Translations under genes and position numbers: made by a program
Notes under the pieces: generated by a model
What the model saw: only the letters and a program-made list of their open reading frames with translations
Databases searched by the model: none
What the model was told of the DNA's origin: nothing
Part shown: one piece after another, positions 7,646 through 39,860 of the stretch
Layout of the letters: the number at the start of each line of letters is the position of its first letter
How positions within the stretch are numbered: position 1 is the first letter of the stretch
From: Chloroflexota bacterium
GTDB lineage: Bacteria; Chloroflexota; UBA11872
DNA: 39,860 nucleotides
Direction of reading: 5' to 3'
Assembly: GCA_026707585.1 (NCBI GenBank)
Contig: JAPOWQ010000012.1
Span: 1-39,860 of the forward strand

Positions 7646-10600
7646 ATGACAGTGTCTCGCGGTAACGGGGGTCAACGAGTCTTTGTTGGGTTTCCCTACT
7701 CGGAGCCGTACTTGTCCATTTACGAGACCAAGGTCTCATGCGCAATCCGAAACTATGGATGGGATCCGATCACGCCACGGGGAGAAGTCCCGCAGGGCAT
7801 CCTGCTCGCACGTATCTCCGCAATGATCGAGGGGTCGGAGCGTGCGGTATACGACATCGGCACAGAGAACGGCAACGTGTGCTTCGAGCTCGGAATCAGC
7901 CTTGCACTTCGACAGCCAGTCGCTTTGATGTCGGATCGAGATCCAGGGGACCTCCCGAATCTGTTCCGCTCACCGTGGCTGTACTGCTACACCGATAGCG
8001 ACACCTGCGTTTCCGCGCTCACTGGATTTCTGGGGCTTGAGAATCCCTTGCCGCTCGTTCCGCGGACTCAGGTTCCAGGAGACCCGGCGTTGGTGGTCGT
8101 GATCGGCACGGGTGACCGTGCCCGTGGGATAGAGCGAGCGCTTCAAGCATCCGGTCATTCGGTCGTCTACCGCAATCCGAACACTATTCGATCGGTCGCA
8201 GAGTCAATTCAACTCGCCGAATCGTGTGGAGCGCTGGTCGCAGCTCGACCAGCCGCCGACCGGTGGAGCGGAGATGACGCGATCGCTGCGCTTGTCACAC
8301 TCGGCGCGGCACACGGTGCGGGTCGCACAGCGATCATTGGTGCTGGACCGGGCGAACAGGTTCCCAGCGACTGCGCGCCGCTTGTCACACGTGGCGCAGA
8401 TGACGTAGACCTCGCGGCCAACGTCATAGAGCAGATCGAGCAGTCCGCGCCGCCGCTTCCGCTCGGCGGCGCGATTCGCCCGACCGCGGAGGAAGCGTTG
8501 CCACGGGCGCTTACGACCCCTGTGGCGGAGCAACTCCGCATTCGCGGCCGCGGGCTGCTATCCGCGGAACCCGGCTACGGCAAGACAACCCTTCTGCACC
8601 AAGTGGCGGACAGACTTGGCTATCCGACTGCTTGGGTGACAATTGAGGCCAACTGGTCAGCGGAATCGCTCATCGCACGTATCGTCGCGGCCGTTGGTGA
8701 GCACGTCAGTCGGTTCGGATGGCAAGCATGGGCCGCCGTGCGACGATCACGACAGGCAGCAGAGGTGATGGACAGCAGGGTGGCGCCGCTGGCCGTCCCT
8801 CACCCGCATCAACTGGCCGAACTGCTTGTCGACAACGCGACTGCCGACGCATCCGAACCGGTGCTGCTCGTATTCGACGACGTGCACAAAGCAACCGTCG
8901 ACGGCGCGAAGCTACTTGATCGATTGACGCAATGTGCGCCCCCATGGCTGCGGCTTCTATTCGCCGGGCGCGGGGCACCAGCACCGATCCAGTCAGCCGC
9001 CGACTCGGGCGGCATTTCCTGCTGGACAGCCGAGGACCTGCAGTTCTCGCGTTGCGAAACCAAGGGCTACCTTGCGCAGACCGTTCCTGGGTTGGACGAC
9101 GAGCGAGCGGATCTGCTGCATGAGCGGTCAGGGGGCTGGCCCGCGGCCTTGGCCATCATCCGAGCGTGGCTCTCGGCAAACACGAACGTATCGATCGAAA
9201 CTCTCACTGACATGACGCGCGGGGACCGGCGCCGGATCTACCGCCTGTTCGCGGCCGATTACTTCGGCCAACTCTCGCAGCGTGCTCAAGACGACCTATT
9301 GGTTTGCTCGGTGCCGCTTCGACTAGACGCCTCGGTAGCGCAGCAACTTCTCGGAACTGACGGCGGCAGGCGATTGCGCACGCTTGCCAACGGTCCGTAC
9401 TTCCTTGCCGAGGAGGAAGCTGGGACCTTCCGGATACACAGCCTGTTTCGCGAGTTTCTCAGCCAGCGCTGGATTGAGGACCGCGGCCTGACGTCCCTTC
9501 AAGACGCGAGGTCCGCACTCGCGCGGTGGTATCAGGACCGCGAGGATCCGGTCTCGGCCTACCAAATGGCCTGCGAAGGTGAAAACTGGTCTATCGCGAT
9601 AGACGTGATTGAGCCATTGGCACGAGCATTCGCAAGTCGAGGCGACGTCGGGTTCCTCAAGGAGCTCCTTGATCCCCTACCGATTGACCGAGTCCGTGAG
9701 CGCCGGTCTGTCTGGGAGTCACGGGTCCGCGCGCTTGCATATACCGGTTCAGCGGAATCACTGGAGGAGGCACGTGCGTTCGCTACTGCGCAAGCACCGT
9801 CGATCGTCGATCAGGCCGTCGCCGACCTGATACTCGCCGAAGTCGAGCACAATCTCGGACACCTCAGCGATGAGGACATGGCAGATGCCTGCAACAGGAT
9901 TGCAGCAAGCGTCAGCGGCCATGACAACTCACTTGGGTTCAGCGCCCGCCTTCTCTCTCTCGACGCTCGCCTGGTCCGTAGCTTCGATCCGGTCGCCTGG
10001 CCACAACTCGAGGACGAAGCGCGTCAACTCCTCACCGAAGCGGAAGCAGCGGATGCGCTGGCTGTTGCAGCCGGAGCCTGTGTAGCAGCAGCAGATCTCG
10101 CCAGCCGATCTGTAGAGACTGAGCTCCGGTCAGAGGGATTGCAACTCAGGATCTTAGAGAGTTTCGGTAACGTAGTTCCTCTGGCGACCAGGCTCGCGCG
10201 CGCTAGCCACTTCCTTGCTCGCTTCGACGAAGTCACCAATCTCTACGATAGAGCGCTCCGACTGGCAGAGGCTGCGAAGTCACCTTTGGTCGTGGCCCGG
10301 GTACAGATCGCTCTTGCGCGTTTCATCGTCCTGAACACCAGCCTAGCCGTTATTCAGTCAGGCGATCAAGACGAATCGACTCGTACGCAAGCGAATAACG
10401 CCCTTCAGCTTGCGCTACACGCAGCTAAGGCCTACTCGGATTTCGGCGCTCCTCGCGGCGCGGCAATCGCACTCAACGCAGCTGCGGAGGCTGCCTCCGT
10501 GCTCGGCGATCAGACGAGGATCAGTAGCCTGACGCAAGAAGCTTCTCGGATAGCTGCGCACTATGGATTTGACGATTTACGCGAGACTGCGGAGCGCATT

Positions 10601-11089
10601 TCCGAGGAACCGACCGCTCCTGACCTGCATCGACGGGCCCAAGCGCCACGTCCGTTCAATCATCAGAGCAGCCAGGAATTGAACGAATTTGTCGAGCAAA
10701 TGATCGGCGCCGCGCCCGTTTCGCCCTCGGACGCGGAGCTGGTGCGACCAGTTCTCCGTGACGAGGCTGCCGATCTTGCGCTGTTGGGAGCTACGTGCGA
10801 GGAGGTCTGTCAGTATTTGGCGCTCCTCAGAGACCGTTCGGGACCAAGGGTCGGGCCATTCTTTGCTGAACTGAGCTGGCGCACGACCTGCCGGCTGCGC
10901 GGCATATCGTCGGTTGAACAAGATGACCGCGCAGGGCCTCTCCTCCAGCGGTTCATGGATGGATTCTGCTCGAACTGCGAATTGCGTTCGCCGGGTCAGG
11001 CTATCCGAAACCCGGGAGAGGACGAGGATATGTATGCGCCACTGCTTGAGCGACTCTCCCGCGACCGAGCAGGTGCAGAAGCAATCTAA
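7646..11089 (+). CDS. STAND ATPase with TIR/deoxyribosyltransferase-like N-terminus and helical repeats
   Basis: 1147 residues. Residues 11-130 form a Rossmann-like domain with RVFVGFPYS, VYDIGTENGNVCFELG (Glu81 fits the catalytic Glu of the family) and PVALMS, typical of TIR-like/nucleoside 2-deoxyribosyltransferase-like domains. Residues about 147-262 look like a second, diverged Rossmann unit (ALVVVIGTGDRARGIERAL). The NTPase core is of MalT/LuxR STAND type: Walker A AEPGYGKTTL (307-316), Walker B PVLLVFDDVH (405-414), the LRLLFAGRG strand, SGGWPAALAI (495-504), then a winged-helix end with RIHSLFREFLSQRW. Residues about 620-980 are TPR-like helices, probably the sensor, and the tail contains a CSNC motif. 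This plan fits NLR/Avs-like immune proteins, in which sensing would trigger NAD+ or nucleotide processing. It stands alone on the plus strand with no clear ribosome binding site. Confidence 0.88.
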   Translation: MTVSRGNGGQRVFVGFPYSEPYLSIYETKVSCAIRNYGWDPITPRGEVPQGILLARISAMIEGSERAVYDIGTENGNVCFELGISLALRQPVALMSDRDPGDLPNLFRSPWLYCYTDSDTCVSALTGFLGLENPLPLVPRTQVPGDPALVVVIGTGDRARGIERALQASGHSVVYRNPNTIRSVAESIQLAESCGALVAARPAADRWSGDDAIAALVTLGAAHGAGRTAIIGAGPGEQVPSDCAPLVTRGADDVDLAANVIEQIEQSAPPLPLGGAIRPTAEEALPRALTTPVAEQLRIRGRGLLSAEPGYGKTTLLHQVADRLGYPTAWVTIEANWSAESLIARIVAAVGEHVSRFGWQAWAAVRRSRQAAEVMDSRVAPLAVPHPHQLAELLVDNATADASEPVLLVFDDVHKATVDGAKLLDRLTQCAPPWLRLLFAGRGAPAPIQSAADSGGISCWTAEDLQFSRCETKGYLAQTVPGLDDERADLLHERSGGWPAALAIIRAWLSANTNVSIETLTDMTRGDRRRIYRLFAADYFGQLSQRAQDDLLVCSVPLRLDASVAQQLLGTDGGRRLRTLANGPYFLAEEEAGTFRIHSLFREFLSQRWIEDRGLTSLQDARSALARWYQDREDPVSAYQMACEGENWSIAIDVIEPLARAFASRGDVGFLKELLDPLPIDRVRERRSVWESRVRALAYTGSAESLEEARAFATAQAPSIVDQAVADLILAEVEHNLGHLSDEDMADACNRIAASVSGHDNSLGFSARLLSLDARLVRSFDPVAWPQLEDEARQLLTEAEAADALAVAAGACVAAADLASRSVETELRSEGLQLRILESFGNVVPLATRLARASHFLARFDEVTNLYDRALRLAEAAKSPLVVARVQIALARFIVLNTSLAVIQSGDQDESTRTQANNALQLALHAAKAYSDFGAPRGAAIALNAAAEAASVLGDQTRISSLTQEASRIAAHYGFDDLRETAERISEEPTAPDLHRRAQAPRPFNHQSSQELNEFVEQMIGAAPVSPSDAELVRPVLRDEAADLALLGATCEEVCQYLALLRDRSGPRVGPFFAELSWRTTCRLRGISSVEQDDRAGPLLQRFMDGFCSNCELRSPGQAIRNPGEDEDMYAPLLERLSRDRAGAEAI

Positions 11090-12930: not shown

Positions 12931-13043
12931 GCAGCCGCAATGCACTAGAGTTCTGCCGGTGATAGCTACGCATTAGCTAGGCCCGGCAACTCCTTGACTC
13001 CATAGCCCGCAACGAGGAAAGCTGAGCAACGGGGGACATGTCC

Positions 13044-14270
13044 ATGCAACTCGGTTCAACGGGACAACTCGCGAAGGTTACAGCCGTTTCTGAGGACGGC
13101 CACCGAGTATATTTTGACTTGCGAAGTGGCCTTTCTGGTTGGCTGGATCAGCCGGATGAGGACTATGAGACGGGAGACGTGCTACTCCTAGTCACCGAGG
13201 ACGGGCGGCAAAAGGCAGAGAAGACTCCCAAGAATGCCTGGCCTGATCAAGAGTGGATCGGCGTCGTTAGGCTAAAATCCGAAACCTACACAGTTATCAC
13301 GGTGGGAAGCCAACATAGAAAGGTCCCGACGACCGATGTCAACTATGAGGTTGGCAACACGGTCGAAGCAGGAGATTTGCAAGGTGTCGTTCGCGTTCTC
13401 TCCAAAACACCGATTAGCCTCATAGATCTTCCATCCCTCGACGAGAGTGTAACAGATGAATTCCTCTGGAAGCCTCCCCAGGGAACTCAACTTGGATTCG
13501 AAGACTTTGGTGGTCTTCACGAAGTTGTATCAAGGGCACACGAACTAATCGAGGTTCCGCTCCAGAACCGTGAGGCGTTGTCGAAAATAGGAGCTCGCCC
13601 CATAAAGGGCGTTTTGTTCACTGGCAAGCCAGGAACCGGAAAGACCTTTCTTGCCCAGATTATCGCCCATCAATCTGGAGCTGATTTCTACAAGATCTCC
13701 GGCCCTGAAATATTCAGCAAGTGGGTTGGACAGAGCGAGGAGTTACTGAGGAAGTTGTTTGATAAAGCCGCGGACAGCGACAAAGCGATCATATTCTTCG
13801 ACGAAATCGACAGTGTCGCGGCGCAGCGCGACGACGAGTCGCATGAGTCATCTACGCGCGTGGTGGCACAACTGCTTACCCTTATGGACGGTTTCTCATC
13901 CAAAGCTAATGTCGTTGTAATAGCTGCGACAAATCGCCGGCAGGACCTAGATGTGGCACTACTCCGACCTGGGCGTTTCGACTGGGAGATACATTTCCCC
14001 TACCCAGACCAATCCGATAGAGAAGAGATTCTCACCACGGCTGCCCGCAGGCTAAACACTCGAAACCCACTTCCACATGGAGCTATTGCAACAAAAACAG
14101 AAGGCTGGTCCGCCGCCGAGCTGGCAGCAATCCTAACTGAGGCAGCCCTGCTGGCTGTTGACGACGGCCGACGTGTAATCTATGAAGAGGACTACATAGG
14201 CGGCTATCAGCGAAGAGCCCGCTACAGAGAACTCTCCCGAGAGATCAGGCAAAGTGGAGGTGGTGAATGA
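13044..14270 (+). CDS. AAA+ ATPase, Cdc48/proteasome-ATPase-like, with N-terminal beta-rich domain
   Basis: 408 residues. I prefer the ATG at 13044 over the one at 13038 because GGGGGA (13031-13036) is then seven bases upstream. Residues 1-130 are strand-rich and may be OB-like or barrel domains, as in proteasome-activating ATPases. The AAA+ core has Walker A GKPGTGKT (194-201), a pore-loop-like KWVGQSEE (226-233), Walker B IIFFDEID (249-256), sensor 1 AATNR, the arginine-finger block LLRPGRFD (307-314) and sensor 2 GWSAAEL (354-360). This is the classic AAA clade of Cdc48/PAN/ARC unfoldases. It is one AAA module only, with no protease domain. It overlaps the next gene by four bases (ATGA), so the two products probably act together. 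GC is visibly lower than in flanking DNA, suggesting transfer. Confidence 0.92.
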   Translation: MQLGSTGQLAKVTAVSEDGHRVYFDLRSGLSGWLDQPDEDYETGDVLLLVTEDGRQKAEKTPKNAWPDQEWIGVVRLKSETYTVITVGSQHRKVPTTDVNYEVGNTVEAGDLQGVVRVLSKTPISLIDLPSLDESVTDEFLWKPPQGTQLGFEDFGGLHEVVSRAHELIEVPLQNREALSKIGARPIKGVLFTGKPGTGKTFLAQIIAHQSGADFYKISGPEIFSKWVGQSEELLRKLFDKAADSDKAIIFFDEIDSVAAQRDDESHESSTRVVAQLLTLMDGFSSKANVVVIAATNRRQDLDVALLRPGRFDWEIHFPYPDQSDREEILTTAARRLNTRNPLPHGAIATKTEGWSAAELAAILTEAALLAVDDGRRVIYEEDYIGGYQRRARYRELSREIRQSGGGE

Positions 14271-15670
14271 GCATTGGGTCGCGACTGTCGAGTCTGTTCC
14301 GACGCCGAAAGAGCCGCGATCCGAATCACGAATTCGGCCGTGAACGGAGGGAGTTCATTTACCTCGATGAGGTTTCAGTCCTAAGCATACTGGCCTCACG
14401 GACGGGCCGGATTGCTACCGAATCAACTGAGAGCCAGACTTCCTCTCAGAATAGTGAGATCAAGGGCTCAGTTGGTGTCGGATTGAGCGGAACCAAGGCC
14501 AACCTCGGCACAATGATGCAAGCTAGCCAGGTTGAGGCATCTCAGGTATCGCGCAAAGCCACCATTCAAAGTAGCTTCAAGGATCTATACAACATTGAAC
14601 GCTCGTCTTTGGCGTTGCATACTACCAACCCAGGAGAACCGCCTACAGTTGACTTGACTCGCGGCCTTGAGGGACTGCTTGCTTCGACTGACATGACTGG
14701 GTTCTTGGTTGACCCTTGCAAACTCTATCGAGGCGAACTTCTGGAAGTTGAAGTAGAACTTGAAGCTGATCCCATTTTCCGAATGTCCTCCATCATCACG
14801 ACTCTCGTCGGGCTGATGGAGGATAACGAGGAACTATTCAAGAACGCAGTCGCCGTCCAGCTATCTGAGATACGATCAGTTGCACGCCTTCTCGACAGCC
14901 TACTCGTAGGGCTCGTCCCCATCCGAGGGCGCCTCGTGGATTTCAAATGGATGCGGATTTCCAATCGTGCCGTATTGGTGCATCAGTCACTTCTCAATCA
15001 GATGCCTATCGACGCACAGCACGAAGCGAATCCCGTGTTTCTCGTAGGCGTTACGCAAAACGATCTTTTTTGGAAGGACATCAGACGGTTGCTATTCTCC
15101 CGGGGCAGGTACACGGTGTTCTGCCGTCTTGCGACAGACGGCCTTGCTGACAAGTGGAGTCCGGTGAAGATGGCGGACGTATTCTCCGGTATGGCTTTAG
15201 ACTTTGATGAAATGATCCAGAGTTTGGGCGATGAACTTATGTCCGGATTCAAGAGAGGAGTGCGTACAGCTACGGCCGGGACGACAGTCAATGGTACGCG
15301 GACGATGCTGAACGCACAACGTGGAAAGCTACTGCTCAGGCATTACGTGATGTTGCTTGCCGGATACCACAAACTAGAAATCGAGGCCTCTCTCATCGAG
15401 GATCTGATTTGCGGGCTGTCGTACGCTGAGAATTGGATGGACAGCGTCGACGGCTACCGGCCAGTTCTTGCAGAGGTGACGAAGATAGTGGATAACTCGC
15501 TAAAGGTCGAGACGCCCCGCGATGTAGCGCACGATCTTAGACTTCTGATTATGGGACATCCAGAGCTTAAGGAAGCTGTCGAACCTGGTGGTTCGACGGT
15601 CGGCGGCGATCACCCTGAATCCCGGTGCGAAAGGTATCTGGACTCAGAGATAATCGCGATCTACTGGTAA
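14267..15670 (+). CDS. DUF6414-type protein, partner of the AAA+ ATPase
   Basis: 467 residues, starting inside the ATPase stop codon (ATGA). After a basic leader with RRRKSRD, residues about 25-115 match what I know of DUF6414: FIYLDEVSVLSILASRTGRI, a Ser/Thr/Gln-rich linker (SQTSSQNSEIKGSVGVGLSG) and SRKATIQSSFKDLYNIE. The middle (about 140-330) alternates helices and strands; the C-terminal third is mostly helical. There are no catalytic motifs or membrane helices that I can name. Coupled translation and shared low GC imply a complex with the AAA+ protein, perhaps as substrate adaptor, sensor or effector. Function is unknown; antiviral defence is inferred only from the neighbourhood. Confidence 0.85.
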   Translation: MSIGSRLSSLFRRRKSRDPNHEFGRERREFIYLDEVSVLSILASRTGRIATESTESQTSSQNSEIKGSVGVGLSGTKANLGTMMQASQVEASQVSRKATIQSSFKDLYNIERSSLALHTTNPGEPPTVDLTRGLEGLLASTDMTGFLVDPCKLYRGELLEVEVELEADPIFRMSSIITTLVGLMEDNEELFKNAVAVQLSEIRSVARLLDSLLVGLVPIRGRLVDFKWMRISNRAVLVHQSLLNQMPIDAQHEANPVFLVGVTQNDLFWKDIRRLLFSRGRYTVFCRLATDGLADKWSPVKMADVFSGMALDFDEMIQSLGDELMSGFKRGVRTATAGTTVNGTRTMLNAQRGKLLLRHYVMLLAGYHKLEIEASLIEDLICGLSYAENWMDSVDGYRPVLAEVTKIVDNSLKVETPRDVAHDLRLLIMGHPELKEAVEPGGSTVGGDHPESRCERYLDSEIIAIYW

Positions 15671-16637: not shown

Positions 16638-19600
16638 CTATCGCCCATAGATTTCCTCGTCAAGTTCGCGCTGGCTAGCCTCATCGATTGCCGTCCGGAT
16701 CCACTCGCACCCAGATTGTCCTACCGCAGCTACACTGGGATCAGGCGACATCGATAGCCTCTTAAAGTACTCTAGCCAAGTCTGCCAGTGAGCGGACTCG
16801 GGACCGTGCCATACCGAGACGATCATTGTAGGACTAACAATGGCCTGTGCGATTCGGATAGGGGACCATCCGGCTTTCGAAGCTACTTTGATCTTGTTCT
16901 CCGACACTCCCACAAATCCAGCCTCATGGTAATCTGACAGACAATCCATGGCAAGAAGGATCTCCAAGACTTCAGTATGATCACCAACCAACTTCGCAAC
17001 TATAGGTGCAAAATAGAAGCTGTCCCTCCCTGCCATGGCCGACAGAATGCTCTTTCTCTGACTGACGGACAGCCCGCCAAAGGCATCGTCTAGGTCTCGG
17101 ATGAACCGGTGTGTATCGCTCGATATGTCATCTTCAATACGAGAAATTAGCCATTCACAGCATAAGTCTGCGTCACTTGCCAAGATGACTGAGAGCATAT
17201 ATGCCTCGCCCGGTGAACGAACTATAGCTGCTCTCCAGTCATCAAACAGAACATCAGGGACATGACGATTATCTCCACTCAGCCATAGACAGACTGCTGT
17301 GATTTCGGCGACCTTGGTGGATGGGTGACGGAGCAGAAGTCGTAGTGTGTTCGCGGGACTCCGACCACGGCGGACAACGCCTTCCAGTAGGTTTCCCATG
17401 TTCCCTAGTCTCGGGAGGACTTCAAGCGCAGATTCAAGCTCCTCGTTTAGCGGCTCATTTACAGTAAGAACAACGACCACAGCTGCGGCCTGAGCCGAGT
17501 CTGAATCGAGCGCGCGCAACACCAATGGAGGACCTTGCTCGGGGCTTTTCTCTCTCGCTTTACGGAGCAGTGGCTCGACAACGATGGAGTCTAGGTTCTC
17601 GGTAACTGCCCATTCGGCCCATGCAAACGGTTGGTCAGTCGTTCGGGCAATCTCGTCAATGAAATCGCCTGTCATATCGGGCCACCCTCCGCCGGCCTCC
17701 GTAGCAGTCTTGATTGAGTCGCGAACCATGCCTAGTACGCTGTCTGGTCCGAGCGGTTCGAGGTCGACTGCCAACACTCGCGCGTTGTTACGCCATGCGC
17801 GCTCCTGATTATCGAGATTGTCGACGTGCCTATCAAGGTCACCCACTCCGGCCAAGAAGTGCTCTTCTGGGAATAGGACTGCGAAGACCTCTGGAACCTT
17901 GATGGAAGCATCGAAACCGGCTCGTCGCAAGAACTCTCGGATCTCTGCAAGTATGCCCGGGTGATGCGAGAATCTTCCTGCAAGATCGGTCGCCATACAC
18001 TTCGTATGCGAGCCCATCACATCCCTAACTTCCGCTGGAGGTGCACGCTCCAGTCCACCAGCGTAGGCCCAGTCATGCAGCATTCTGAAGAGCACCGAGT
18101 AGTCATCTGGACCCGAAACTGGTATAGACTCCAGGATAGTTGGCCAAATCTCGATCAGCCCGTCCAGACAGGCTCCCGAGACCAGTCCGGACTTGAGAGT
18201 TATCGTGTCTCCCGATCCAGCATCCACACTGGTTGATTCGAATTTCGGGCTCATGGCCAAGCACAGGGCCTGAATGACGACCTGTGGATTACCGTCGGCA
18301 TGGCCGTATAGAACCGTTTCATTCGCCAGCAGCCTGCGTCGGTCGAACTGCTGATCATCCGTGGATGGGGCCGATTCGATCCAATCCTCAAGAATCCGTA
18401 GCGGATGATCGGGATGAGAGTGCAAGGGCCGTCGATCTCCAACGGCCCGCACAAGCAACATTGGAATCGTCTCCGCCGGACTAGTCAAGAGCGAATACGG
18501 CGCTATCTCCGTTAGCCATTCCGGTCGAACCTCGAGTGCAAAACTAGCCTCCCGCCGACCAAGCAGGACGTATCCTTTGAAATCATCAACTTCACCAAAT
18601 CTGATCAGGAACTCCTCAATGGTCCTCGCAGGAACTCGTGCACCCATGCGTGCCGCACCGACTAAGGAACCCACTACGCCCTCTCCATCCAGGCTCCGAA
18701 TTGCAAGATCTAGAGGAATATTCACAGAAGCCTTGGGCGAATGGAATGCATCGCCGACAGTTGCAAATCGTAGTTCTCGTGGCCATATCGTAGCTTTACC
18801 AGTGAGAGATTCAATTCGAAACACACCGGTATGTCCCAGGCGAGCCATTGACGTATGCGATTCGACGACGTTCAATCCGAGGATCGTCTGCACATCTACT
18901 AAAGATGCACCTCTATCTCCCGACAGAGCCATCACGGCGAGGACGTACATGAGATTAGGATCACCAACACGGTTCACCATTGTTCTGAAGTCGCGAAGAA
19001 GAGATTCTCCTGTCAGAAGTGTTCTAGCTCCGTCTCTTCGGACATAGTCACAGAGTGTTGCCGTAAGCCCAGGCCGTCCGCCTGATTGCTTCACTATCGC
19101 TCTTTGAAGCTCTACCGGCCCAGTGATATCCATCGCTTGGACAACTTCGAGTATCTCGTCCTGGGTCAGCAATCGGAGCTCTAGGATTGAGCCTTGAGGA
19201 ACGCCGAGGGCGCCTGCTACTTCATCTTTGTCGCCGGGCCAAGTCGTAGCGGCAATCCGAAAGTCAGCGTCTATCTCTAATCTCAAATGGCGGAGGCTGC
19301 GGAGACTTTCCAAGGCAGCATGCGCGTCATCGACAACAATGACTTTAGGCTCTAAGTCGCGCACCGCGGTTGCAACTCGCCTGCTGTCTGCGTCAACCAA
19401 GAACAGCCAGTCCTTGTCGACGAACTGCCGTAGCAGGTGCGTCTTTCCCGAGGCTGGATGACCCGAGATCACGATGTCGTCGGAACTATCCTCCAGCCAA
19501 TTCCTGTCCGATTCACGTCCGGTTAGCGGGAGGTTGCTCGTAGGCCGTGACGATAACGGCACTGCCGAAAGCGCAGGCAACTCCCCGCTGAGTCCCAAAA

Positions 19601-20114
19601 GTTCGCACGTCCAGCGTGATGAACGATAGAGCTCGTCCGCGAACCACTGGCGGCCGTGGACGTTAATTAGCCGAAAACCTTCGTTGGCTGCGGCGCCGCT
19701 GAGGCTGTCCTTAAGAGGCCCAGTTTCGTTTTGGGTTGTCGCGACTATGACACGTCGTGCGGAAATACTCCCACTCTGAGATTTGTGACTGCGAAGATTC
19801 GATATAAGGTTTCTTCTGACACTTCGCGCTGTCGTCGTGACAAGCATTGTTGGTCCTTCGGAGCCCGATGCATCCAGGCCGTCCATTCCCAGGTCGCCGC
19901 CGCCCTCGACGGGCGTGAGTCGAGGGTATCGCTTGCGCAAAAGATCCTGAGCGCATAGCTCGAACGTGTCTGGCTCTGGACCTTCCGCCAGCCTGTCCAA
20001 TATTGCTCTGTAATGCCGATCGCGAATCACGTGACCGATGACTGAATCAACTTGGACAATCTTACCGATGCGATGCGCCCGACGGGATGCATCCCTAGCA
20101 GCGACTTCCGACAT
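16638..20114 (-). CDS. Large P-loop (STAND-like) ATPase with N-terminal restriction-endonuclease-like domain
   Basis: 1158 residues. Residues about 46-175 look like an Mrr/restriction-endonuclease-type domain: FELCAQDLLRKRYPRLTPVE, GGGDLGMDG (candidate catalytic Asp), the strand MLVTTTA where canonical enzymes carry (D/E)xK, then RRVIVATTQ and VHGRQWFADELY. The missing Lys makes cleavage uncertain. The P-loop module follows: Walker A ISGHPASGKTHLL (216-228), Walker B VIVVDDAH (258-265) and RIAATTWPG as a sensor-like strand, with SGGRPGLTATL matching the winged-helix entry of STAND proteins. Residues 450-1158 are helical-repeat-like and probably sense a ligand. This plan fits an Avs-like antiphage protein. 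The ATG at 20114 has no good ribosome binding site, so the start is uncertain. GC is lower than in flanking DNA. Confidence 0.88.
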   Translation of the reverse strand: MSEVAARDASRRAHRIGKIVQVDSVIGHVIRDRHYRAILDRLAEGPEPDTFELCAQDLLRKRYPRLTPVEGGGDLGMDGLDASGSEGPTMLVTTTARSVRRNLISNLRSHKSQSGSISARRVIVATTQNETGPLKDSLSGAAANEGFRLINVHGRQWFADELYRSSRWTCELLGLSGELPALSAVPLSSRPTSNLPLTGRESDRNWLEDSSDDIVISGHPASGKTHLLRQFVDKDWLFLVDADSRRVATAVRDLEPKVIVVDDAHAALESLRSLRHLRLEIDADFRIAATTWPGDKDEVAGALGVPQGSILELRLLTQDEILEVVQAMDITGPVELQRAIVKQSGGRPGLTATLCDYVRRDGARTLLTGESLLRDFRTMVNRVGDPNLMYVLAVMALSGDRGASLVDVQTILGLNVVESHTSMARLGHTGVFRIESLTGKATIWPRELRFATVGDAFHSPKASVNIPLDLAIRSLDGEGVVGSLVGAARMGARVPARTIEEFLIRFGEVDDFKGYVLLGRREASFALEVRPEWLTEIAPYSLLTSPAETIPMLLVRAVGDRRPLHSHPDHPLRILEDWIESAPSTDDQQFDRRRLLANETVLYGHADGNPQVVIQALCLAMSPKFESTSVDAGSGDTITLKSGLVSGACLDGLIEIWPTILESIPVSGPDDYSVLFRMLHDWAYAGGLERAPPAEVRDVMGSHTKCMATDLAGRFSHHPGILAEIREFLRRAGFDASIKVPEVFAVLFPEEHFLAGVGDLDRHVDNLDNQERAWRNNARVLAVDLEPLGPDSVLGMVRDSIKTATEAGGGWPDMTGDFIDEIARTTDQPFAWAEWAVTENLDSIVVEPLLRKAREKSPEQGPPLVLRALDSDSAQAAAVVVVLTVNEPLNEELESALEVLPRLGNMGNLLEGVVRRGRSPANTLRLLLRHPSTKVAEITAVCLWLSGDNRHVPDVLFDDWRAAIVRSPGEAYMLSVILASDADLCCEWLISRIEDDISSDTHRFIRDLDDAFGGLSVSQRKSILSAMAGRDSFYFAPIVAKLVGDHTEVLEILLAMDCLSDYHEAGFVGVSENKIKVASKAGWSPIRIAQAIVSPTMIVSVWHGPESAHWQTWLEYFKRLSMSPDPSVAAVGQSGCEWIRTAIDEASQRELDEEIYGR

Positions 20115-24487: not shown

Positions 24488-27427
24488 ATGCCCCGCACCG
24501 CCGAACACACCGTCAACGTCGAACTCGCCCGCCTGCTGCGCGGCAAGCATCCGCGCTGGCGGCACGGCATCGGCGTCGAACAGACCGGAGTGCTGGCTGG
24601 CGCGCCGAGCGATCGACCCGACATCCTTATCCAGCATCCAGGCGGCCTGCCCGTCGTTATCGAGACTGAGTACCACCCCGCCCGCGAAGTTGAGCGCGAC
24701 GCCATCGACCGGCTCGGCGAATCCGTCGCGTCCACAGGTGAAGTAATCGAGCAGGCCGTTGCCCTGCGCGTGCCCGTCGAGCTTCGCGGCGTCAACCAGG
24801 CCGTCCTACCCCGGCAGGTAGACGACGCCGCATTCGACTACTGTGTCTTCACCGAGGGCGCCGAAGGCCCGGACCGCTGGCCCGCGAGCGGCTGGCTCGC
24901 CGGCGGAGTCGATGACCTTGCCGGCTTCATCGAGCACACCGCGCTGTCCGAACGCCGTATCGCTCGCGGTACCCAGATCCTCGAAGTCGGCGTCCGACAA
25001 GCCGCCGGTCGCCTCGAAGCCATGCTGCTGCAACCGCAGGGCATATTGCGCCGACGGGCTGCCGTCCTCCACCAGCAACCGGGCGAGCAGACCGAGCGCA
25101 TGGCCATGGCCATCGTGGCTAACGCCATGACCTTCCACGCCACCCTCGCTGCCGCGGAGCTCGGCGTTCGGTCATTCGACGATCTGCGCCAGGAGTCCCC
25201 GCTGAAGCACCTGAGCCGCTCCATTGTGGTCGCGGAATGGCGCCGCATTCTGCGGGAGATCAACTACTGGCCGATCTTTCAGATTGCCGTCGACTTGATG
25301 TCGCCGGTCTCGCCGCGCGAGGCCACGTCGATTCTTGAGCACTTGGCCAAAGTCGCGGATGCGTTGCACGAGATCGGAACCTCGACTACTCACGACCTCT
25401 CAGGCCAGATGTTCGGACGCCTCATCGCCGACCGGAAGTTTCTGGCCACTTTCTATACCCTGCCGGCTTCCGCCGCCCTTCTTGCCGAACTTGCCGCCGC
25501 CCGGCTGGATGTGGACTGGCCGGACCCTGAAGCATTCACCAATCTGCGAATCGCCGACTTGGCCTGTGGCACCGGCGCGCTGCTGGCCGCCGCCTATCGC
25601 GCCGTCGCGTCCCGTCATCGGCGCGCCGGCGGCGACGACGCGCCCCTCCATGCCGCCATGATGGAACATGCCCTCATCGGCGCGGACATCATGCCGGCCG
25701 CCACCCATCTCACCGCCTCCACGCTATCCAGTGCGCATCCCGGCTTGCCGTTTGACCGCACCCGAATCCACACCATGCCCTACGGCGATCCCGAAGCCGA
25801 CGACCCAAGTGGACGCGCAACTGCCATCGGCTCATTGGACTTGATTCTCAAGGATGCCCAGCCTTCTCTCTTCGGTACTGGTCAGCACGCCATTCGGGGC
25901 CGCGGCGAGCATCCGCATTCAGATACGTCGCCAGGTCGGCAGCGACAAGGCGACGAACTCCACCTGCCCCAGTCCTCGGTCGATCTCACGATCATGAATC
26001 CGCCGTTCACCAGCCCGACGAACCACGCAGCACAAAACAACGTCCCGATTCCGTCGTTTGCTGGATTCGCCACCGGCGAAGACGAGCAGCGAAGGATGTC
26101 GGAGGTGCTCAGCGGAATCCGCGGATGCATACAGCAGCCTGTAGGCCACGGGAACGCCGGACTGGCTTCAAACTTCATCGACCTCGCGCACGCGAAGGTT
26201 AAGCCGGGAGGTGTCCTGGCCCTGGTCCTGCCCCTAGCAGTTGTATCGGGTAGCGCATGGTCGTCGGCCCGACAGCTCTTTGCTCGCGCCTACCGAGATC
26301 TGACCATCGTCACAATTGCGGCTGTCGGCGACACCGCGAGTGCGTTTTCGTCGGACACCAGCCTCGGTGAGGCGCTTGTTGTCGCAACACGTCGGGAGAG
26401 CCCGGTCCGTACGGACGAGTCGATGGCCGGGACGCTCTACGTAAGTCTCGGCAGGCGGCCTCGAAGTCTGGCTGAAGCCTCAGAGATCGCTCGCGCGGCT
26501 CAACGACTACCTGAACTTAGTAGCGGGCTAATTCAGATTGGCGACGAGACAGTCGGCTGTTTCATCCGCGCCACACTCGCTGACAGCGGCTGCGTCGCAG
26601 TTCGAGAACCAAGTGTCGCGCAAGCCGCGCTGGCCTTGAGAGATGGCTCGCTGCACCTCCCGCGCGTACGTGATTCCTGGAGTCTTCCCATTGCCCCTTT
26701 AGCCGAGCTCGGCGACCGAGGGCTGGTGCACCGCGACATCAACGGTAGAAACTCCGACGGCTCCGCCCGCGGTCCTTTCGACGTGATGCCGCGACACGGC
26801 GTGGCCTCGACGTACCCAATGCTCTGGCAGCACGGGGCCAAACGTGAGCGGCGGCTCCGCGTAGAGCCGGACACGGAAGGCCGCGTCCGGAACGGCTGCG
26901 ACAACAGGGCGCTTGACGTATGGGACTCAGCAACCCGGCTTCACTTGACCCTGGACTTCCGTCTCAACTCACAGAGCTTGTCGGCGTGCCTTACGCCCGA
27001 AAGATCGATCGGCGGACGCGCTTGGCCGAATTACAGAATTCAAAGTCCGGCGGCTGAAGAGGCCATTGCTCTCTGGGCCAACTCCACTCTTGGCTTGATG
27101 AGCTTCTGGTGGACGGGCGGACGTCAGCAGCAAGGCCGTTCGATTATGACCATTACCCAGCTGCCTGAACTCTCGGCTCTGGATTTCCGCCAACTAAGCC
27201 AGAAACAGATCGAACTATCGCGCAAGCTCTTCAATGACTTTCTTGACTACGAATTCCTGCCCGCCAACGAGGCCTACCACGACCCCGCCCGCAAAGCCCT
27301 CGATCAGGCCGTCCTAACCGACCTCCTCGGCCTTCCCGAGTCCATCCTTGAACCTCTTGCCCTCCTCCGCCTCCAATGGTGCGCCGAACCCACCGTCCAC
27401 GGTGGCAAGTCCACCCGTCCCCGATAG
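24488..27427 (+). CDS. Adenine-specific DNA methyltransferase with nuclease-like N-terminus (type IIG-like)
   Basis: 979 residues. The methyltransferase core is clear: motif X/helical block DRKFLATFYTLPASAALLA (315-333), SAM-binding motif I IADLACGTGALLAAAY (355-370), and catalytic motif IV IMNPPF (502-507), so it should place N6-methyladenine. Residues about 8-75 show a restriction-nuclease-like pattern, RPDILI (43-48) then VVIETEY (56-62). The ExE in place of ExK makes nuclease activity uncertain. Residues about 650-960 would be the target-recognition region (SFWWTGGRQQQGRS, YRIQSPAAEEAIALWANS). The enzyme could be a single-chain restriction-modification protein or the methylase of a multi-gene defence system; no separate specificity or helicase gene is adjacent. 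No strong ribosome binding site precedes the ATG. A membrane-protein gene lies 180 bases downstream. Confidence 0.9.
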   Translation: MPRTAEHTVNVELARLLRGKHPRWRHGIGVEQTGVLAGAPSDRPDILIQHPGGLPVVIETEYHPAREVERDAIDRLGESVASTGEVIEQAVALRVPVELRGVNQAVLPRQVDDAAFDYCVFTEGAEGPDRWPASGWLAGGVDDLAGFIEHTALSERRIARGTQILEVGVRQAAGRLEAMLLQPQGILRRRAAVLHQQPGEQTERMAMAIVANAMTFHATLAAAELGVRSFDDLRQESPLKHLSRSIVVAEWRRILREINYWPIFQIAVDLMSPVSPREATSILEHLAKVADALHEIGTSTTHDLSGQMFGRLIADRKFLATFYTLPASAALLAELAAARLDVDWPDPEAFTNLRIADLACGTGALLAAAYRAVASRHRRAGGDDAPLHAAMMEHALIGADIMPAATHLTASTLSSAHPGLPFDRTRIHTMPYGDPEADDPSGRATAIGSLDLILKDAQPSLFGTGQHAIRGRGEHPHSDTSPGRQRQGDELHLPQSSVDLTIMNPPFTSPTNHAAQNNVPIPSFAGFATGEDEQRRMSEVLSGIRGCIQQPVGHGNAGLASNFIDLAHAKVKPGGVLALVLPLAVVSGSAWSSARQLFARAYRDLTIVTIAAVGDTASAFSSDTSLGEALVVATRRESPVRTDESMAGTLYVSLGRRPRSLAEASEIARAAQRLPELSSGLIQIGDETVGCFIRATLADSGCVAVREPSVAQAALALRDGSLHLPRVRDSWSLPIAPLAELGDRGLVHRDINGRNSDGSARGPFDVMPRHGVASTYPMLWQHGAKRERRLRVEPDTEGRVRNGCDNRALDVWDSATRLHLTLDFRLNSQSLSACLTPERSIGGRAWPNYRIQSPAAEEAIALWANSTLGLMSFWWTGGRQQQGRSIMTITQLPELSALDFRQLSQKQIELSRKLFNDFLDYEFLPANEAYHDPARKALDQAVLTDLLGLPESILEPLALLRLQWCAEPTVHGGKSTRPR

Positions 27428-35422: not shown

Positions 35423-38182
35423 TCAGGTTCCCTGGTAGCTTGCGCGTTTCCTGCGTCTGCGAGCAGCCGCGATAAGCCCTGCGATCAGCCCTGCGATCAG
35501 CAGCAGGAACCAAGGCCATGGTGAAAGCCATGACGGAGGGATAGCCAGGGATGCTTGAGCGGTCGTTCGCGCTGCGGCGCCTGAGGCAATCGACTCGGAC
35601 CCGGCTTGCGCCGGGTCACTGCGCGACGCAGGTGTGAGCCGCAGAGTGGTTGTGAGCTGCTGAGCAAGCGAGGTAACCGACTCCGGGAGGGTCGCGGATG
35701 TCGTACCCGAGGTAGACGCAGGAGTGGTCCCGGTCGTGGGCACGGATGTCGTCACGGAAGTGGGCGTGGGAGTCGTCCCTGAAATGAGCGCGGGCACCGT
35801 CCCCGGCGGAGACGTGGGCGTCGTCCCCGGCGGCGGCGTGGGTGTCGTCCCCGGCGGAGGCGTAGGTGTCGTCCCCGGCGGGGGCGTGGGTGTCGTCCCC
35901 GGCGGAGGCGTGGGCGTCGTCCCCGGCGGGGGCGTGGGCGTAGTCCCCGGCGGAGGCGTGGGCGTCGTCCCCGGCGGGGGCGTGGGCGTCGTCCCCGGCG
36001 GGGGCGTGGGCGTCGTCCCCGGCGGGGGCGTGGGCGACGCATCGTCGTCCGCGATGGTGGTGGTGACCGACGAGGCGCCGAGGCTCGGCGTTGGACCCCC
36101 GCCGCCCGCGGGGCTGGACACGGAAACGGCGAACGTCTCTCCGGCACCCTCGTCGAGGGTGTCTTCCAACGTGCTGACCCTGAATGTCTGCATGCTCAGT
36201 GCCGCCTGTGTGAAGGTCAGCATCCCTGTGATCGCTGTGTAGTCCGTCCCCGCCGTCGCCGTGCCGTTGGCGGTCCCGTAGCTAACGGTGAGGTCAGAAG
36301 TTGGCTTCACCCCAAACGGGGACAGCCACACCGTGTAGACGGTCGTCGCGTCCCCCTCGTTAACGCTCGACGGCCCCGAGATGTTGACGCTAATCGGGTC
36401 ACTCGCCGCGATCCTCGCCGTGGCCCAGCCTCTGCCCGGCTTCACCAACACACGGGATGCAAGGTCGCCCGAGACTGGTCCAAGTGCGACTGTGAAAGTC
36501 TCCGCCCCTTCGGAGAGCATGTCCTGGTTGGTGGCGATGGTGATGGTCTGCGTCGACGCCTCGGCCGAGTTGGCCGGAAAGGTGACGGTGCCCCGCGACG
36601 GCCCGGTGTAATCGGAGGCGTCCGCGGTGCCGGGGGTCACATGGAAGGCGACGGTGATGTCGGCGTCTACCTGCCGCGAGAGGGTGACGGTGAACTGAGC
36701 GCTGGAGCCTTCCGGTGTCTCGGTCGAGGGTGACTCAATGCTCAGAGAGGCAGTGCTTCGGCCGTCGCCGGTGGGATCGACAAGGGTGATGCTGTCCGCT
36801 GCTTGACCCAAGCCAGGGGCGTTGCCGACGACGGAAATCGCCTCCGGACCTTCGATTGTTCCGTCGTTCTTCGGCGTGATAGTCAACGTGTCGGTCGCGC
36901 TGGATTGACCCGCGGGGATGGTGATGCCCGCCAGGTTTGTCGCTGTGTAATCGGACGCGTCAGCCGTCCCCGACAGCGTCAGAGTGACGACAACGTCCTC
37001 GCTGCCGGCAGTCCCGTCCTTCAGCGTCGCCCTGACTGTGACCGTCGTCGGCCCGGCGTCCTCGGCGATGCTGCTGGGGCTGACATCCAAAGTGAAGCCG
37101 GTGGGCGCCGGGACAGGCGTAGGCGTCGGCTCCGGCGACGACGGCGGTTTCGCAGGTCGAGATCTGGACGGCGCATCATCATCCGCGATGGTCGTGCGCA
37201 CCGACGAGGTACCCAGGCTCGGCGCCGGCCCGCCCCCGCCGGCGGGACTGGTGAGGGTCACGCGGAACGTCTCCCCCGACCCCTCGTCCACGTCGTCCTC
37301 CGTGGTCTGGACGGTAAAGGCCTGGGCTCCCGCCGCCGTCCCCGTGAACGTCAGCGTCCCTGTCGTGGCCGTAAAGTCCGTCCCCGCCGTGGCCGTCCCG
37401 TTGGCCGTGGCGTAGCGCACCGTTAGGTCCTCCGTTGGCACCACGCCAAATGGCGAGAGGGAGACTGTGTAGCTGCCCGTCGTGTCCCCCTCATCCACGC
37501 TCGATGGCCCGCTGATGTTCACCGTGATCGGGTCGCTCGCGGCAATGGTGGCCTCGGCGCTGGCAGCGGTCGCCTTGACAAAAACGTTAGCCGCTTCGTC
37601 TCCGGTATCGGTCCCCAACGAGACGCTGAAGGTCTCGGCAGTCTCCGACAAGCTGTCTTCGGCGACCGGGATGGTGATGGTCTGCGCCGCGCCCGCCGCG
37701 GAGTTGGCCGGGAAGGTCACCGTGCCGGACGTTGCCGTGAAGTCCGAATCCTCAGCTGTCCCTGCCGTGGCTCCCCAGGCAACCGTAACGTCGGCGCTCA
37801 CAGACTTGGACAGGGTGACGGTGAAGGATGCGTTCGACCCCTCGTCCACATCGTCAGATGGCCCGCTGATGCTCAGATACGCAGCTTCGTTGTCATGGAT
37901 GGTGATGAGCGCAGAGTCGATGATCAGGGCTTCGAAGGTCCCGCCAACAATGATGGTCTCGTCGCCCTCCACATCGGTGTCGTCGATCAAGGTGAGCGTC
38001 AGGGTCCCGCTGCCGCTGGACTGGCTGGCCGGGATGGTCACGCTGGCCGTCGCCGGGGCGGTGTAATCGGAGCTGTTCGCCGTACCTCCCAGACTGAGGC
38101 CAATCGTGATGTCTTCAGTCCGCGGCGTGCCGGTCAGGGTGGCTGTGACCGTAAAGTTGGTTTCGCCGTCACCCTCGTCCAC
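35423..38182 (-). CDS. Giant Calx-beta surface protein, C-terminal part (after a frameshift)
   Basis: About 919 codons from a GTG at 38182, which is internal: the frame is open back to the homopolymer at 38242-38248 and continues the protein encoded to the right. It contains several Calx-beta-type modules, each with blocks such as DYTAPATASVTIPA, DTDVEGDETIIV, SISGPSDDVDEGSNASFTVT and TIADDDA, whose acidic residues bind Ca2+ in known members. They are followed by ten PPPGTTPT units (a Pro-Thr stalk), a Ser/Thr-rich region, one membrane helix (PWPWFLLLIAGLIAGLIAAA) and a basic tail RRRRKR. The order suggests a cell-surface adhesin on a stalk anchored in the membrane, with no LPxTG motif. It is separated from the upstream part by a single-base frameshift, so its status depends on that tract. 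Confidence 0.85.
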   Translation of the reverse strand: MDEGDGETNFTVTATLTGTPRTEDITIGLSLGGTANSSDYTAPATASVTIPASQSSGSGTLTLTLIDDTDVEGDETIIVGGTFEALIIDSALITIHDNEAAYLSISGPSDDVDEGSNASFTVTLSKSVSADVTVAWGATAGTAEDSDFTATSGTVTFPANSAAGAAQTITIPVAEDSLSETAETFSVSLGTDTGDEAANVFVKATAASAEATIAASDPITVNISGPSSVDEGDTTGSYTVSLSPFGVVPTEDLTVRYATANGTATAGTDFTATTGTLTFTGTAAGAQAFTVQTTEDDVDEGSGETFRVTLTSPAGGGGPAPSLGTSSVRTTIADDDAPSRSRPAKPPSSPEPTPTPVPAPTGFTLDVSPSSIAEDAGPTTVTVRATLKDGTAGSEDVVVTLTLSGTADASDYTATNLAGITIPAGQSSATDTLTITPKNDGTIEGPEAISVVGNAPGLGQAADSITLVDPTGDGRSTASLSIESPSTETPEGSSAQFTVTLSRQVDADITVAFHVTPGTADASDYTGPSRGTVTFPANSAEASTQTITIATNQDMLSEGAETFTVALGPVSGDLASRVLVKPGRGWATARIAASDPISVNISGPSSVNEGDATTVYTVWLSPFGVKPTSDLTVSYGTANGTATAGTDYTAITGMLTFTQAALSMQTFRVSTLEDTLDEGAGETFAVSVSSPAGGGGPTPSLGASSVTTTIADDDASPTPPPGTTPTPPPGTTPTPPPGTTPTPPPGTTPTPPPGTTPTPPPGTTPTPPPGTTPTPPPGTTPTPPPGTTPTSPPGTVPALISGTTPTPTSVTTSVPTTGTTPASTSGTTSATLPESVTSLAQQLTTTLRLTPASRSDPAQAGSESIASGAAARTTAQASLAIPPSWLSPWPWFLLLIAGLIAGLIAAARRRRKRASYQGT
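35799..36038 (-). repeat. Ten tandem 24-bp repeats encoding PPPGTTPT
   Basis: Ten consecutive 24-bp units, each starting GTCCCCGGCGG on the plus strand, with the last unit next to the Calx-beta modules. Variation is mostly at third positions, so the peptide PPPGTTPT is kept while the DNA drifts. The tract forms the Pro/Thr stalk before the membrane anchor. In-frame 24-bp units allow unit gain or loss without frameshift, so stalk length may vary between strains. Confidence 0.93.
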
Positions 38183-38220
38183 GCTGTCCGGAGAGACGCT
38201 GAGCCCGATGGCTATGTTCC

Positions 38221-39860
38221 CTATAAGGCCGGGATTGTCTTGGGGGGGTCGCTGACGGGTTCGTTGTCCGCGATCGTCGTCTCCACCGACGCCGTCCCTA
38301 GGCTCGGCGCCGGCCCGCCGCCGCCGCTGGGACTCGACATCGTCACCGTGAAGGTCTCATCGCCCTCTGACAAAATGTCTTCGGTCGTCCGCACCTCCAC
38401 CGTCTGCGCCCCCGCCGCTGCCTGGGTAAAGGTGAGCGTGCCGGAGGCGGCGGTGTAGTCGTCGCCCGCCGTGGCCGTCCCGTCCGCCGTCCCGTAGCTC
38501 ACCGTCAGGTCGGCCGTCGGAGTCACCCCGGCCGGCGTCAGCGACACGGTGTAGGTGGCGGAATCACCCTCGTCGACAGTGGACGGGCCTGATAGCTCCA
38601 CGGTGATCGGGTCGCTGGCAGCTATGGTCGCCGTTGCCGATTCCGACCCGCTCTCCAGGGACACCCGGTCCGACAGGTCTCCCGAGATGGTCCCCAGGGT
38701 CACCGTGAAGGACTCCGCAGTCTCCGACAGCTGGTCGTCCGTGGCCGTGATGCTGATGGTCTGGGTGGCGTTGGCCGCCGAGTTGGCCGCGAACGTCACC
38801 GTCCCCGACGTGGCCGACAGGTCCGCGGTCTCCGCCGCGTCCGTCCCCAGCGGCGCCGACCAGGCCACCGTCACGTCCGCCGCCACCGCCTTGGACAGCG
38901 TGACGGTGAAGACGGCGGCAGATCCCTCCGCCACCGACGCCGAAGGGCCGGATATGCTCAGTTTCGCGCCGTCAACTTTCAGACTGGTTTTGCGGTCGGT
39001 CAGGGTGATGCTGGCCGAGCTCACCTTCAATCCCGTCGCCGTCCCCGGGACCTCAATCGTCTCGTCGCCTTCCTTCACCCCGTCGTCGGACGGCGTCAGC
39101 GTGAGTGTCCCAGTCCCGCTCGCCGTGTTCGCCGGGATGGTGATGCTGGCCAGCGTGGTCGCCGTGTAGTCCGTGTTCTGCGTCGCCGTCCCGCCCAGCG
39201 TCCCGATCGTCACCACCGTCGCCTCGGTGCGCGTGCCCCCGGTCAGCAACGCCGTCACCGTCACCTTGGTCGCCCCGTCGTCCTCTTCCAACGTCGACGG
39301 ACTTGCGTTCAGGGTGATGTCCGCGTCGTCGTCCGTCAGCGTCACTGTCGCGTCGCTCACGCTCAGACCCACCGTCGTCGTCCCCGGGATCGTGATCGTT
39401 TCGTCGCCTTCAGCCACCTGATCGTCTGTCGGCGTCAGGGTCAGCGTCCCCGTGGCGCTCGCCGTGTTCGCCGGGATCGTGATGCTGGTCAGCGTCGTCG
39501 CCGTGTAGTCGGTATTCTGCGTCGCCGTCCCGCCCAGCGTCCCGATCGTCACCACCGTCGCCTCGGTCCGCGTGCTCCCCCCACTCAGCGTCGCCGTCAC
39601 CGTCACCGAGGTGGCGCTGTCGTCCTCGGCCAACGTCGACGGACTCGCGCTCAGGGTGATGTCCGCACCGTCGTCCGTCAGCGTCACCGTCGCATCGCTC
39701 ACGCTCAATCCCACCGTCGTCGTTCCGGGGATCACGATCGTCTCGTCACCCTCGACCACCTGGTCATCCGTCGGCGTGATCGTGAGTGTGCCCGTGCCCG
39801 TGGTTGCGTTCGCCGGGATCGTGATGCTCGCCAGCGTCCCCGCCGTGTAGTCGGTCCCCT
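38221..39860 (-). CDS. Giant Calx-beta surface protein, N-proximal part, 5' end beyond the right edge
   Basis: The frame is open from the window edge to a stop at 38221. It encodes highly similar Calx-beta modules of roughly 100 residues, with recurring blocks DYTATTLTSITIPANT, DDQVAEGDETITIPGT and VGLSVSDATVTLTDD, then diverged modules (LSISGPSASVAEGSAAVFTV, DPITVELSGPSTVDEGD). The frame ends DPPKTIPAL right after a run of seven C (coding strand). With eight C the text becomes DPPQDNPGLIGNIAIGL and runs directly into the C-terminal part that ends at 35423. The signal peptide and true start lie outside the window. The near-identical modules suggest recent internal duplication. Either this is a real frameshift, a phase-variable tract, or a sequencing error. 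Confidence 0.85.
   Translation of the reverse strand, partial: GTDYTAGTLASITIPANATTGTGTLTITPTDDQVVEGDETIVIPGTTTVGLSVSDATVTLTDDGADITLSASPSTLAEDDSATSVTVTATLSGGSTRTEATVVTIGTLGGTATQNTDYTATTLTSITIPANTASATGTLTLTPTDDQVAEGDETITIPGTTTVGLSVSDATVTLTDDDADITLNASPSTLEEDDGATKVTVTALLTGGTRTEATVVTIGTLGGTATQNTDYTATTLASITIPANTASGTGTLTLTPSDDGVKEGDETIEVPGTATGLKVSSASITLTDRKTSLKVDGAKLSISGPSASVAEGSAAVFTVTLSKAVAADVTVAWSAPLGTDAAETADLSATSGTVTFAANSAANATQTISITATDDQLSETAESFTVTLGTISGDLSDRVSLESGSESATATIAASDPITVELSGPSTVDEGDSATYTVSLTPAGVTPTADLTVSYGTADGTATAGDDYTAASGTLTFTQAAAGAQTVEVRTTEDILSEGDETFTVTMSSPSGGGGPAPSLGTASVETTIADNEPVSDPPKTIPAL
38242..38248. repeat. Homopolymer of seven G (C on the coding strand) at the frameshift point
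   Basis: Seven consecutive G on the plus strand lie exactly where the two Calx-beta frames meet. One more base would join them without loss of module text. Homopolymers like this slip during replication and are also a common site of sequencing error. Confidence 0.9.

What the first reader, a model, noticed from the sequence alone, without database searches (positions are those of the whole stretch)
7646..11089. NLR-like protein with two Rossmann-like N-terminal units on a MalT-type STAND core
Seen: a TIR/nucleoside-deoxyribosyltransferase-like domain (residues 11-130), an apparently second diverged Rossmann unit (147-262), a P-loop core with MalT-like hallmarks, and about 350 residues of TPR-like helices. 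Known: TIR-like domains in bacterial immunity degrade NAD+. Inference: MalT-type STAND modules are best known as transcription factors, so their use with a nucleotide-cleaving effector in place of LuxR-type DNA binding would be an unusual immune architecture.
Basis: partly seen in the sequence, partly recalled or inferred. Interest (0 to 1): 0.7.

Follow-up and report, generated by a model that had tools for sequence, protein, structure and literature searches.

The report
NLR-like protein with deoxyribosyltransferase-type effector
A single bacterial protein joins a predicted nucleotide-cutting domain to an ATP-driven switch of the kind normally used to turn on genes, and it looks like an uncommon version of a bacterial immune receptor, though nobody has tested whether it defends the cell.

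Summary
The 1147-aa ORF at 7646-11089 (+) is real and built much as described. Residues 10-130 fold as a nucleoside 2-deoxyribosyltransferase/DNPH1-type domain (VIA-align Z 15.6 to human DNPH1, about 12-12.5 to TIRs) with the catalytic Glu kept as Glu81. DNPH1's general acid Asp80 falls on Ile57, so that acid is missing, which fits an NAD(P)-type substrate better than a deoxynucleotide (inference). Residues 147-262 look Rossmann-like, identity unresolved. Residues about 290-690 are a MalT-family STAND core (E 5e-22), then weakly repeat-like helices; no DNA-binding domain was found. None of 26 near MalT-type relatives has the N-terminal motif; Trans_reg_C was found in 11 and GerE in 10 of them. 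A related N-terminal domain stands before a different P-loop core (Sll1717 family) in the same genome, four other genomes of the phylum, Occultella and a phage contig. The gene lies among defence-type genes. Best reading: an NLR-like immune receptor in which a DRHyd-type effector replaces the DNA-binding output of a MalT-family switch; a new variant of a known kind. Immune role and substrate are inferred, not shown.

The parts
7646..11089 (+). Single-gene NLR-like protein, 1147 aa
   Evidence: ORF, codon-position GC, homologues of the core
7673..8035 (+). Domain 1, residues 10-130: NDT/DNPH1-type (DRHyd) effector domain
   Evidence: AlphaFold model and VIA-align Z 15.6 to DNPH1; profile vs PDB E 1e-4; BLASTP E 5e-8 to the second protein of the same genome
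7886..7888 (+). Codon of Glu81, the predicted catalytic Glu (motif NGNVCFELG)
   Evidence: invariant in 35 aligned sequences; aligned with the catalytic Glu of DNPH1
7814..7816 (+). Codon of Ile57, at the position of the DNPH1 general acid Asp80 (acid absent)
   Evidence: HMMER alignment in which the D80A and D80N mutants 8rpt/8rps mark the column
8084..8431 (+). Domain 2, residues 147-262: Rossmann-like unit of unresolved identity
   Evidence: strand/helix order in the model, block pLDDT 44-69; Pfam F420_oxidored E 1.4e-4 on the isolated stretch; not matched by a profile of the Sll1717-type second domains
8513..9715 (+). MalT-family STAND NTPase core, residues about 290-690
   Evidence: NCBIfam MalT E 5e-22, AAA_16 E 3e-9, phylum-wide relatives
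8573..8590 (+). Walker A, GYGKTT (residues 310-315)
8870..8887 (+). Walker B, VFDDVH (residues 409-414)
9533..10645 (+). Helical, TPR-like C-terminal region, predicted sensor/autoinhibitory arm
   Evidence: weak TPR_7 match; some alignments with MalT-type relatives reach into it
13038..14270 (+). Neighbour: AAA+ ATPase, nearest defence model IetA
   Evidence: PADLOC E 3e-35
14267..15670 (+). Neighbour overlapping the AAA gene: DUF6414 protein
   Evidence: Pfam E 4e-46
16638..20114 (-). Neighbour: large P-loop protein with REase-like N terminus (second NLR-like candidate)
   Evidence: PADLOC REase-containing model E 5e-4 at 49-140; weak AAA_16 at 212
24488..27427 (+). Neighbour: defence-type DNA methyltransferase
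   Evidence: PADLOC MTase_II/mad2 E about 5e-9

Best explanation
It is a one-protein NLR-like conflict (probably anti-phage) receptor. At rest the MalT-type NTPase holds nucleotide and the C-terminal helical arm keeps the protein shut. A trigger, probably an invader molecule, binds the arm; the core exchanges nucleotide and oligomerises, as MalT does. Clustering switches on the N-terminal NDT/DRHyd domain, which uses Glu81 to cut an N-glycosidic bond, most likely in NAD(P)+, so that the infected cell stops growing or dies. The second Rossmann-like unit probably serves as a spacer or nucleotide-binding regulator. Shown: domains and order, conserved catalytic Glu, MalT-type core with intact Walker motifs, no recognised DNA-binding domain, defence-type neighbours. 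Inferred: trigger, oligomerisation, substrate, immune outcome.
For: Domain 1 fold and Glu. MalT core. No DNA-binding family at E up to 1, whereas Trans_reg_C is found in 11 and GerE in 10 of 26 MalT-type relatives. A related domain 1 stands in front of another P-loop NTPase core in the same genome and in six other sequences, one on a phage contig; that core family weakly matches an anti-phage model (DS41_1, E 1e-8 to 1e-14, below cut-off). The Glu is kept in all seven. It is the only MalT-like protein found in its genome, with none in 23 other genomes of the order, so an accessory gene. Neighbours are of defence type. DNPH1's Asp80 is Ile57 here; DNPH1 is proposed to need it to protonate the base (PMC10483697), while nicotinamide leaves neutral (general knowledge). 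DRHyd domains as NADase effectors and as N-terminal partners of STAND NTPases are described (PMC9503650, PMC8195603).
Against: No orthologue with the full architecture was found, so conservation of the whole protein could not be tested. A MalT-family STAND could still regulate transcription through a partner. Conservation around Glu81 does not fix the substrate. Domain 2 is unexplained. No promoter-like site was found. The core and arm were not modelled here.
Confidence: 0.6

Rival explanations
1. The effector cuts (deoxy)nucleoside monophosphates or nucleosides, as DNPH1, MilB and NDT do, and so starves the phage of precursors or destroys modified nucleotides, rather than cutting NAD+.
For: The best fold and profile matches are DNPH1/Rcl, MilB and NDTs, above TIRs.
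Against: The DNPH1 Asp80 position is Ile57 here and mostly Ile/Val-type in the relatives; conflict-system DRHyd domains are described as NADase effectors (PMC9503650).
Confidence: 0.25
2. A signal-generating receptor: the domain makes a nucleotide-derived messenger (cyclic ADP-ribose type) for a separate effector.
For: TIR/DRHyd enzymes can make such messengers (PMC9503650).
Against: No dedicated partner gene is recognised next to it; it looks like a lone gene.
Confidence: 0.12
3. A metabolic transcription regulator of the MalT kind with an N-terminal nucleotide-sensing domain.
For: The MalT-type core is mostly found in LuxR- or BTAD-type regulators.
Against: No GerE/BTAD or other DNA-binding family at E up to 1; catalytic Glu conserved; defence-type neighbours; accessory distribution.
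Confidence: 0.1

Closest known systems
MalT-family STAND ATPases (MalT, LuxR/BTAD-type regulators)
   Same: NTPase core residues 304-685 (E 5e-22), Walker motifs, GGW and FREFL-type motifs, helical region behind it
   Different: No DNA-binding output domain; about 290 extra N-terminal residues with an enzyme-type domain; 78 bits against the MalT equivalog cut-off of 537
DRHyd-fronted Sll1717-family P-loop ATPases
   Same: Domain 1 related (BLASTP E 5e-8 to the one in the same genome), a second domain follows, then a P-loop NTPase; Glu kept
   Different: Different NTPase core (no Sll1717 match here), second domain not detectably related, window protein about 350 residues longer
Avs5 and other Avs STAND defence proteins
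   Same: Effector - STAND - repeat layout; Avs5 hydrolyses NAD+ through an N-terminal Sir2-like domain (PMC12931631)
   Different: Other effector fold, other STAND clade, no PADLOC Avs match
DNPH1/Rcl, MilB and nucleoside 2-deoxyribosyltransferases
   Same: Fold (Z about 12.4-15.6) and catalytic Glu
   Different: General acid Asp absent; fused to a STAND protein
Swarozyc / DUF4062 TIR-like NADases
   Same: Another TIR/NDT-related NADase branch used in anti-phage defence (PMC13174449)
   Different: No DUF4062 match at E up to 1

Membership tests
NDT/DRHyd class (domain 1) | NDT-type Rossmannoid fold | tested here: met
   Block pLDDT 75-93 over residues 11-130; VIA-align Z 15.6, rmsd 2.4, 122 residues to DNPH1
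NDT/DRHyd class (domain 1) | Catalytic Glu in the ELG motif | tested here: met
   Glu81 invariant in 35 sequences, aligned with DNPH1 YELG
Pfam PF05014 Nuc_deoxyrib_tr | Score over the gathering cut-off | tested here: not met
   No match for the window protein at E up to 1 or for domain 1 alone at E up to 5
DNPH1-type N-hydrolase | Conserved Asp80 general acid | tested here: not met
   Position holds Ile57; role of Asp80 from PMC10483697
TIR domain | Pfam TIR match | tested here: not met
   No TIR family at E up to 1 or up to 5 for the isolated domain
TIR domain | TIR fold | tested here: inconclusive
   TIRs match at Z about 12-12.5, below NDT/DNPH1
MalT-family STAND | MalT-type NTPase core with Walker A/B | tested here: met
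   NCBIfam PRK04841 E 5e-22 over 304-685; motifs
MalT transcription regulator | C-terminal LuxR-type DNA-binding domain | tested here: not met
   No GerE at E up to 1; equivalog cut-off not reached
Avs (AVAST) systems | Match to an Avs model | tested here: not met
   PADLOC scan: only mad8, E 0.017 over the P-loop
Sll1717-family ATPases | NF047389 core | tested here: not met
   No match in the window protein, strong in the seven relatives
NLR-like immune receptor (functional class) | Protects against phage; trigger-dependent oligomerisation | not testable with these tools
   Needs experiment
NAD+-cleaving effector | NAD(P)+ hydrolysis needing Glu81 | not testable with these tools
   Needs experiment

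The most novel reading that the evidence does not exclude
A lineage of MalT-family switches that has left gene regulation for immunity by taking over a DRHyd effector, with the second Rossmann unit binding NAD(P) as a built-in gauge of the effector's own substrate.
Probability: 0.12. Interest if true: 0.65.

Novelty: new variant of a known kind. Interest (0 to 1): 0.45.

Why it matters
STAND switches are shared by bacterial regulators and by immune receptors of bacteria, plants and animals. A case in which the regulator-type core carries an enzyme in place of DNA binding, with relatives of that enzyme domain on another core, suggests modules being exchanged and gives a direct test of whether a MalT-type switch can fire an enzyme. 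It also points to DRHyd-Sll1717 proteins, one of them on a phage contig, as defence candidates.

Tried and rejected
Second unit as a copy of the second domain of the Sll1717-type relatives: by eye an AHGxG motif lines up, but a profile of seven of them does not find it at E up to 10 among 2000 shuffles, so dropped as a claim. Second unit as NAD(P) Rossmann: F420_oxidored E 1.4e-4 on the isolated stretch but 0.0019 and under the cut-off in the whole protein; PDB best 0.036: left open. Folding it alone failed (mean pLDDT 46), so no fold search was made with it. Plain Foldseek of residues 1-290 gave unspecific two-domain matches; the viral library's best hit was an NDT. Scans with residues 1-290 in plasmids and viral contigs and with the full protein in phage records found nothing; full-protein plasmid hits covered the core region only. 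The one genome-contig scan gave 2 loci because only one pattern was usable. Pfam NDT family in the own genome: one 211-aa frame below cut-off.

Full report
Observation. The ORF at 7646-11089 is exactly as described: 1147 aa, ATG start, with the codon-position composition of a gene along its length. Its GC at third positions (0.65) and that of most neighbours from 13 to 28 kb (0.49-0.73, with one ORF pair unclear) is lower than in the large Calx-beta genes at 35-39.8 kb (0.80-0.89), which fits an imported stretch but does not prove one.

Domain 1 (residues 10-130). No Pfam family matches it. Alignment with distant relatives in the same phylum and with 34 further sequences, most of them from viral contigs, leaves N75, N77, V78, E81 and G83 invariant. 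A profile of that alignment finds DNPH1/Rcl (E 1e-4), NDTs (E 1e-3) and, weakly, Cap12 (E 0.1) among PDB sequences. An AlphaFold2 model of residues 1-290 is confident for this domain, and VIA-align ranks human DNPH1 first (Z 15.6, rmsd 2.4, 122 residues), then MilB (14.5), NDTs (12.4-13.9), SPARTA TIR (12.5) and plant TIRs (about 12). So it belongs to the NDT/DRHyd side of the TIR-DrHyd-SLOG class (PMC9503650), not to TIR proper.

Active site. E81 lies on the catalytic Glu of DNPH1 (Glu104; PMC10483697). The mutant chains 8rpt (D80A) and 8rps (D80N) mark the column of the general acid Asp80 in the alignments; here it is Ile57, and most other members of this class have a hydrophobic residue there too. 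DNPH1 is proposed to use Asp80 to protonate the departing base (PMC10483697). A Glu without that acid is what TIR NADases have, where neutral nicotinamide leaves (general knowledge). This makes NAD(P)+ more likely than a deoxynucleotide; it is an inference.

Domain 2 (residues 147-262). The model gives strand-helix alternation at block pLDDT 44-69, and alone it does not fold with confidence (46). Its first 40 residues resemble an NAD(P)-binding Rossmann motif (F420_oxidored E 1.4e-4 on the isolated stretch; F420:NADP oxidoreductase 5n2i E 0.036). A profile of the second domain of seven Sll1717-type relatives does not find it. It is therefore 'Rossmann-like, identity open'.

Core and arm. NCBIfam's MalT model matches residues 304-685 at E 5e-22, far under its equivalog cut-off: a MalT-family core, not MalT. 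Of 94 columns at least 80% conserved in 26 relatives from the phylum, 46 are identical here, including Walker A, a Walker B Asp, R442, GW and the FREFL-type motif. Those relatives have the P-loop at residue 48-238 of their frames and none has the NxNVxxELG-type motif; Trans_reg_C is found in 11 and GerE in 10 of them, several being cut off at the 3' end of the stretch held. The window protein has neither. Repeats behind the core are only weakly recognised.

Where the N-terminal domain occurs. In the same genome an 836-aa frame (L042:8216-10723, contig C69) has a related domain 1 (BLASTP E 5e-8), then another domain, then a Sll1717-family P-loop ATPase (E 9e-56). The same layout is found in four other genomes of the phylum (L044, L045/L137, L046, L140), in Occultella glacieicola (L051) and on a viral contig (L136). 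All keep the Glu. In a sample of 400 phylum genomes the window protein is the only full-length module match on a MalT core; its own match is by construction, since it is a row of the profile. Simpler proteins with the same class of domain are found there and in many viral contigs.

Surroundings. In the window lie an IetA-like AAA ATPase overlapping a DUF6414 gene, a large P-loop protein with a REase-like N terminus, a defence-type methyltransferase, a T5orf172 gene and an HTH gene. This resembles a defence island. The gene itself appears to stand alone, and no other MalT-like protein is found in the genome or in 23 other genomes of the order.

Mechanism. By analogy with MalT and with Avs5, whose Sir2-like domain hydrolyses NAD+ after a phage protein is sensed (PMC12931631), the arm would sense, the core would exchange nucleotide and oligomerise, and clustering would switch on domain 1. 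Only the parts list is shown; the chain of events is inferred.

Known and new. N-terminal DRHyd or TIR domains on STAND NTPases of other clades are described (PMC8195603, PMC7159879), and an NLR-like protein whose HHpred relatives include MalT is known (LypB; PMC13236601). I found no description of a DRHyd effector on a MalT-family core in the papers held here; two main Avs/bNACHT papers could not be read. Hence: new variant of a known kind. The phylum was not named by the tools and I do not assert it.

Noticed in passing
L042:8216-10723 (-), contig C69 of the same genome: 836-aa DRHyd + second domain + Sll1717-family ATPase, beside a large ORF that reads like a type IIG-style restriction-methylation protein (motifs DPAMGSGHFL, NPPW; by eye only); a defence candidate of its own.
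   Followed up: partly
L136:3983-6382: A DRHyd-Sll1717 protein on a viral contig between a primase/helicase-like gene and a ParB-methyltransferase-like gene (neighbours by eye), so apparently phage-borne.
   Followed up: partly
window 13038-15670: IetA-like AAA ATPase overlapping a DUF6414 gene, not the usual IetS protease partner: possible two-gene defence system.
   Followed up: no
window 16638-20114 (-): 1158-aa P-loop protein with REase-like N terminus and long C terminus: second NLR-like candidate in the same window.
   Followed up: no
window 10796-10978 (residues 1051-1111): Five Cys (1051, 1055, 1082, 1108, 1111) in the C-terminal tail, spaced like a possible metal site; no family match.
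   Followed up: no
window 35423-39759 (-): Two adjacent large frames with four Calx-beta stretches each, GC3 0.80-0.89.
   Followed up: no
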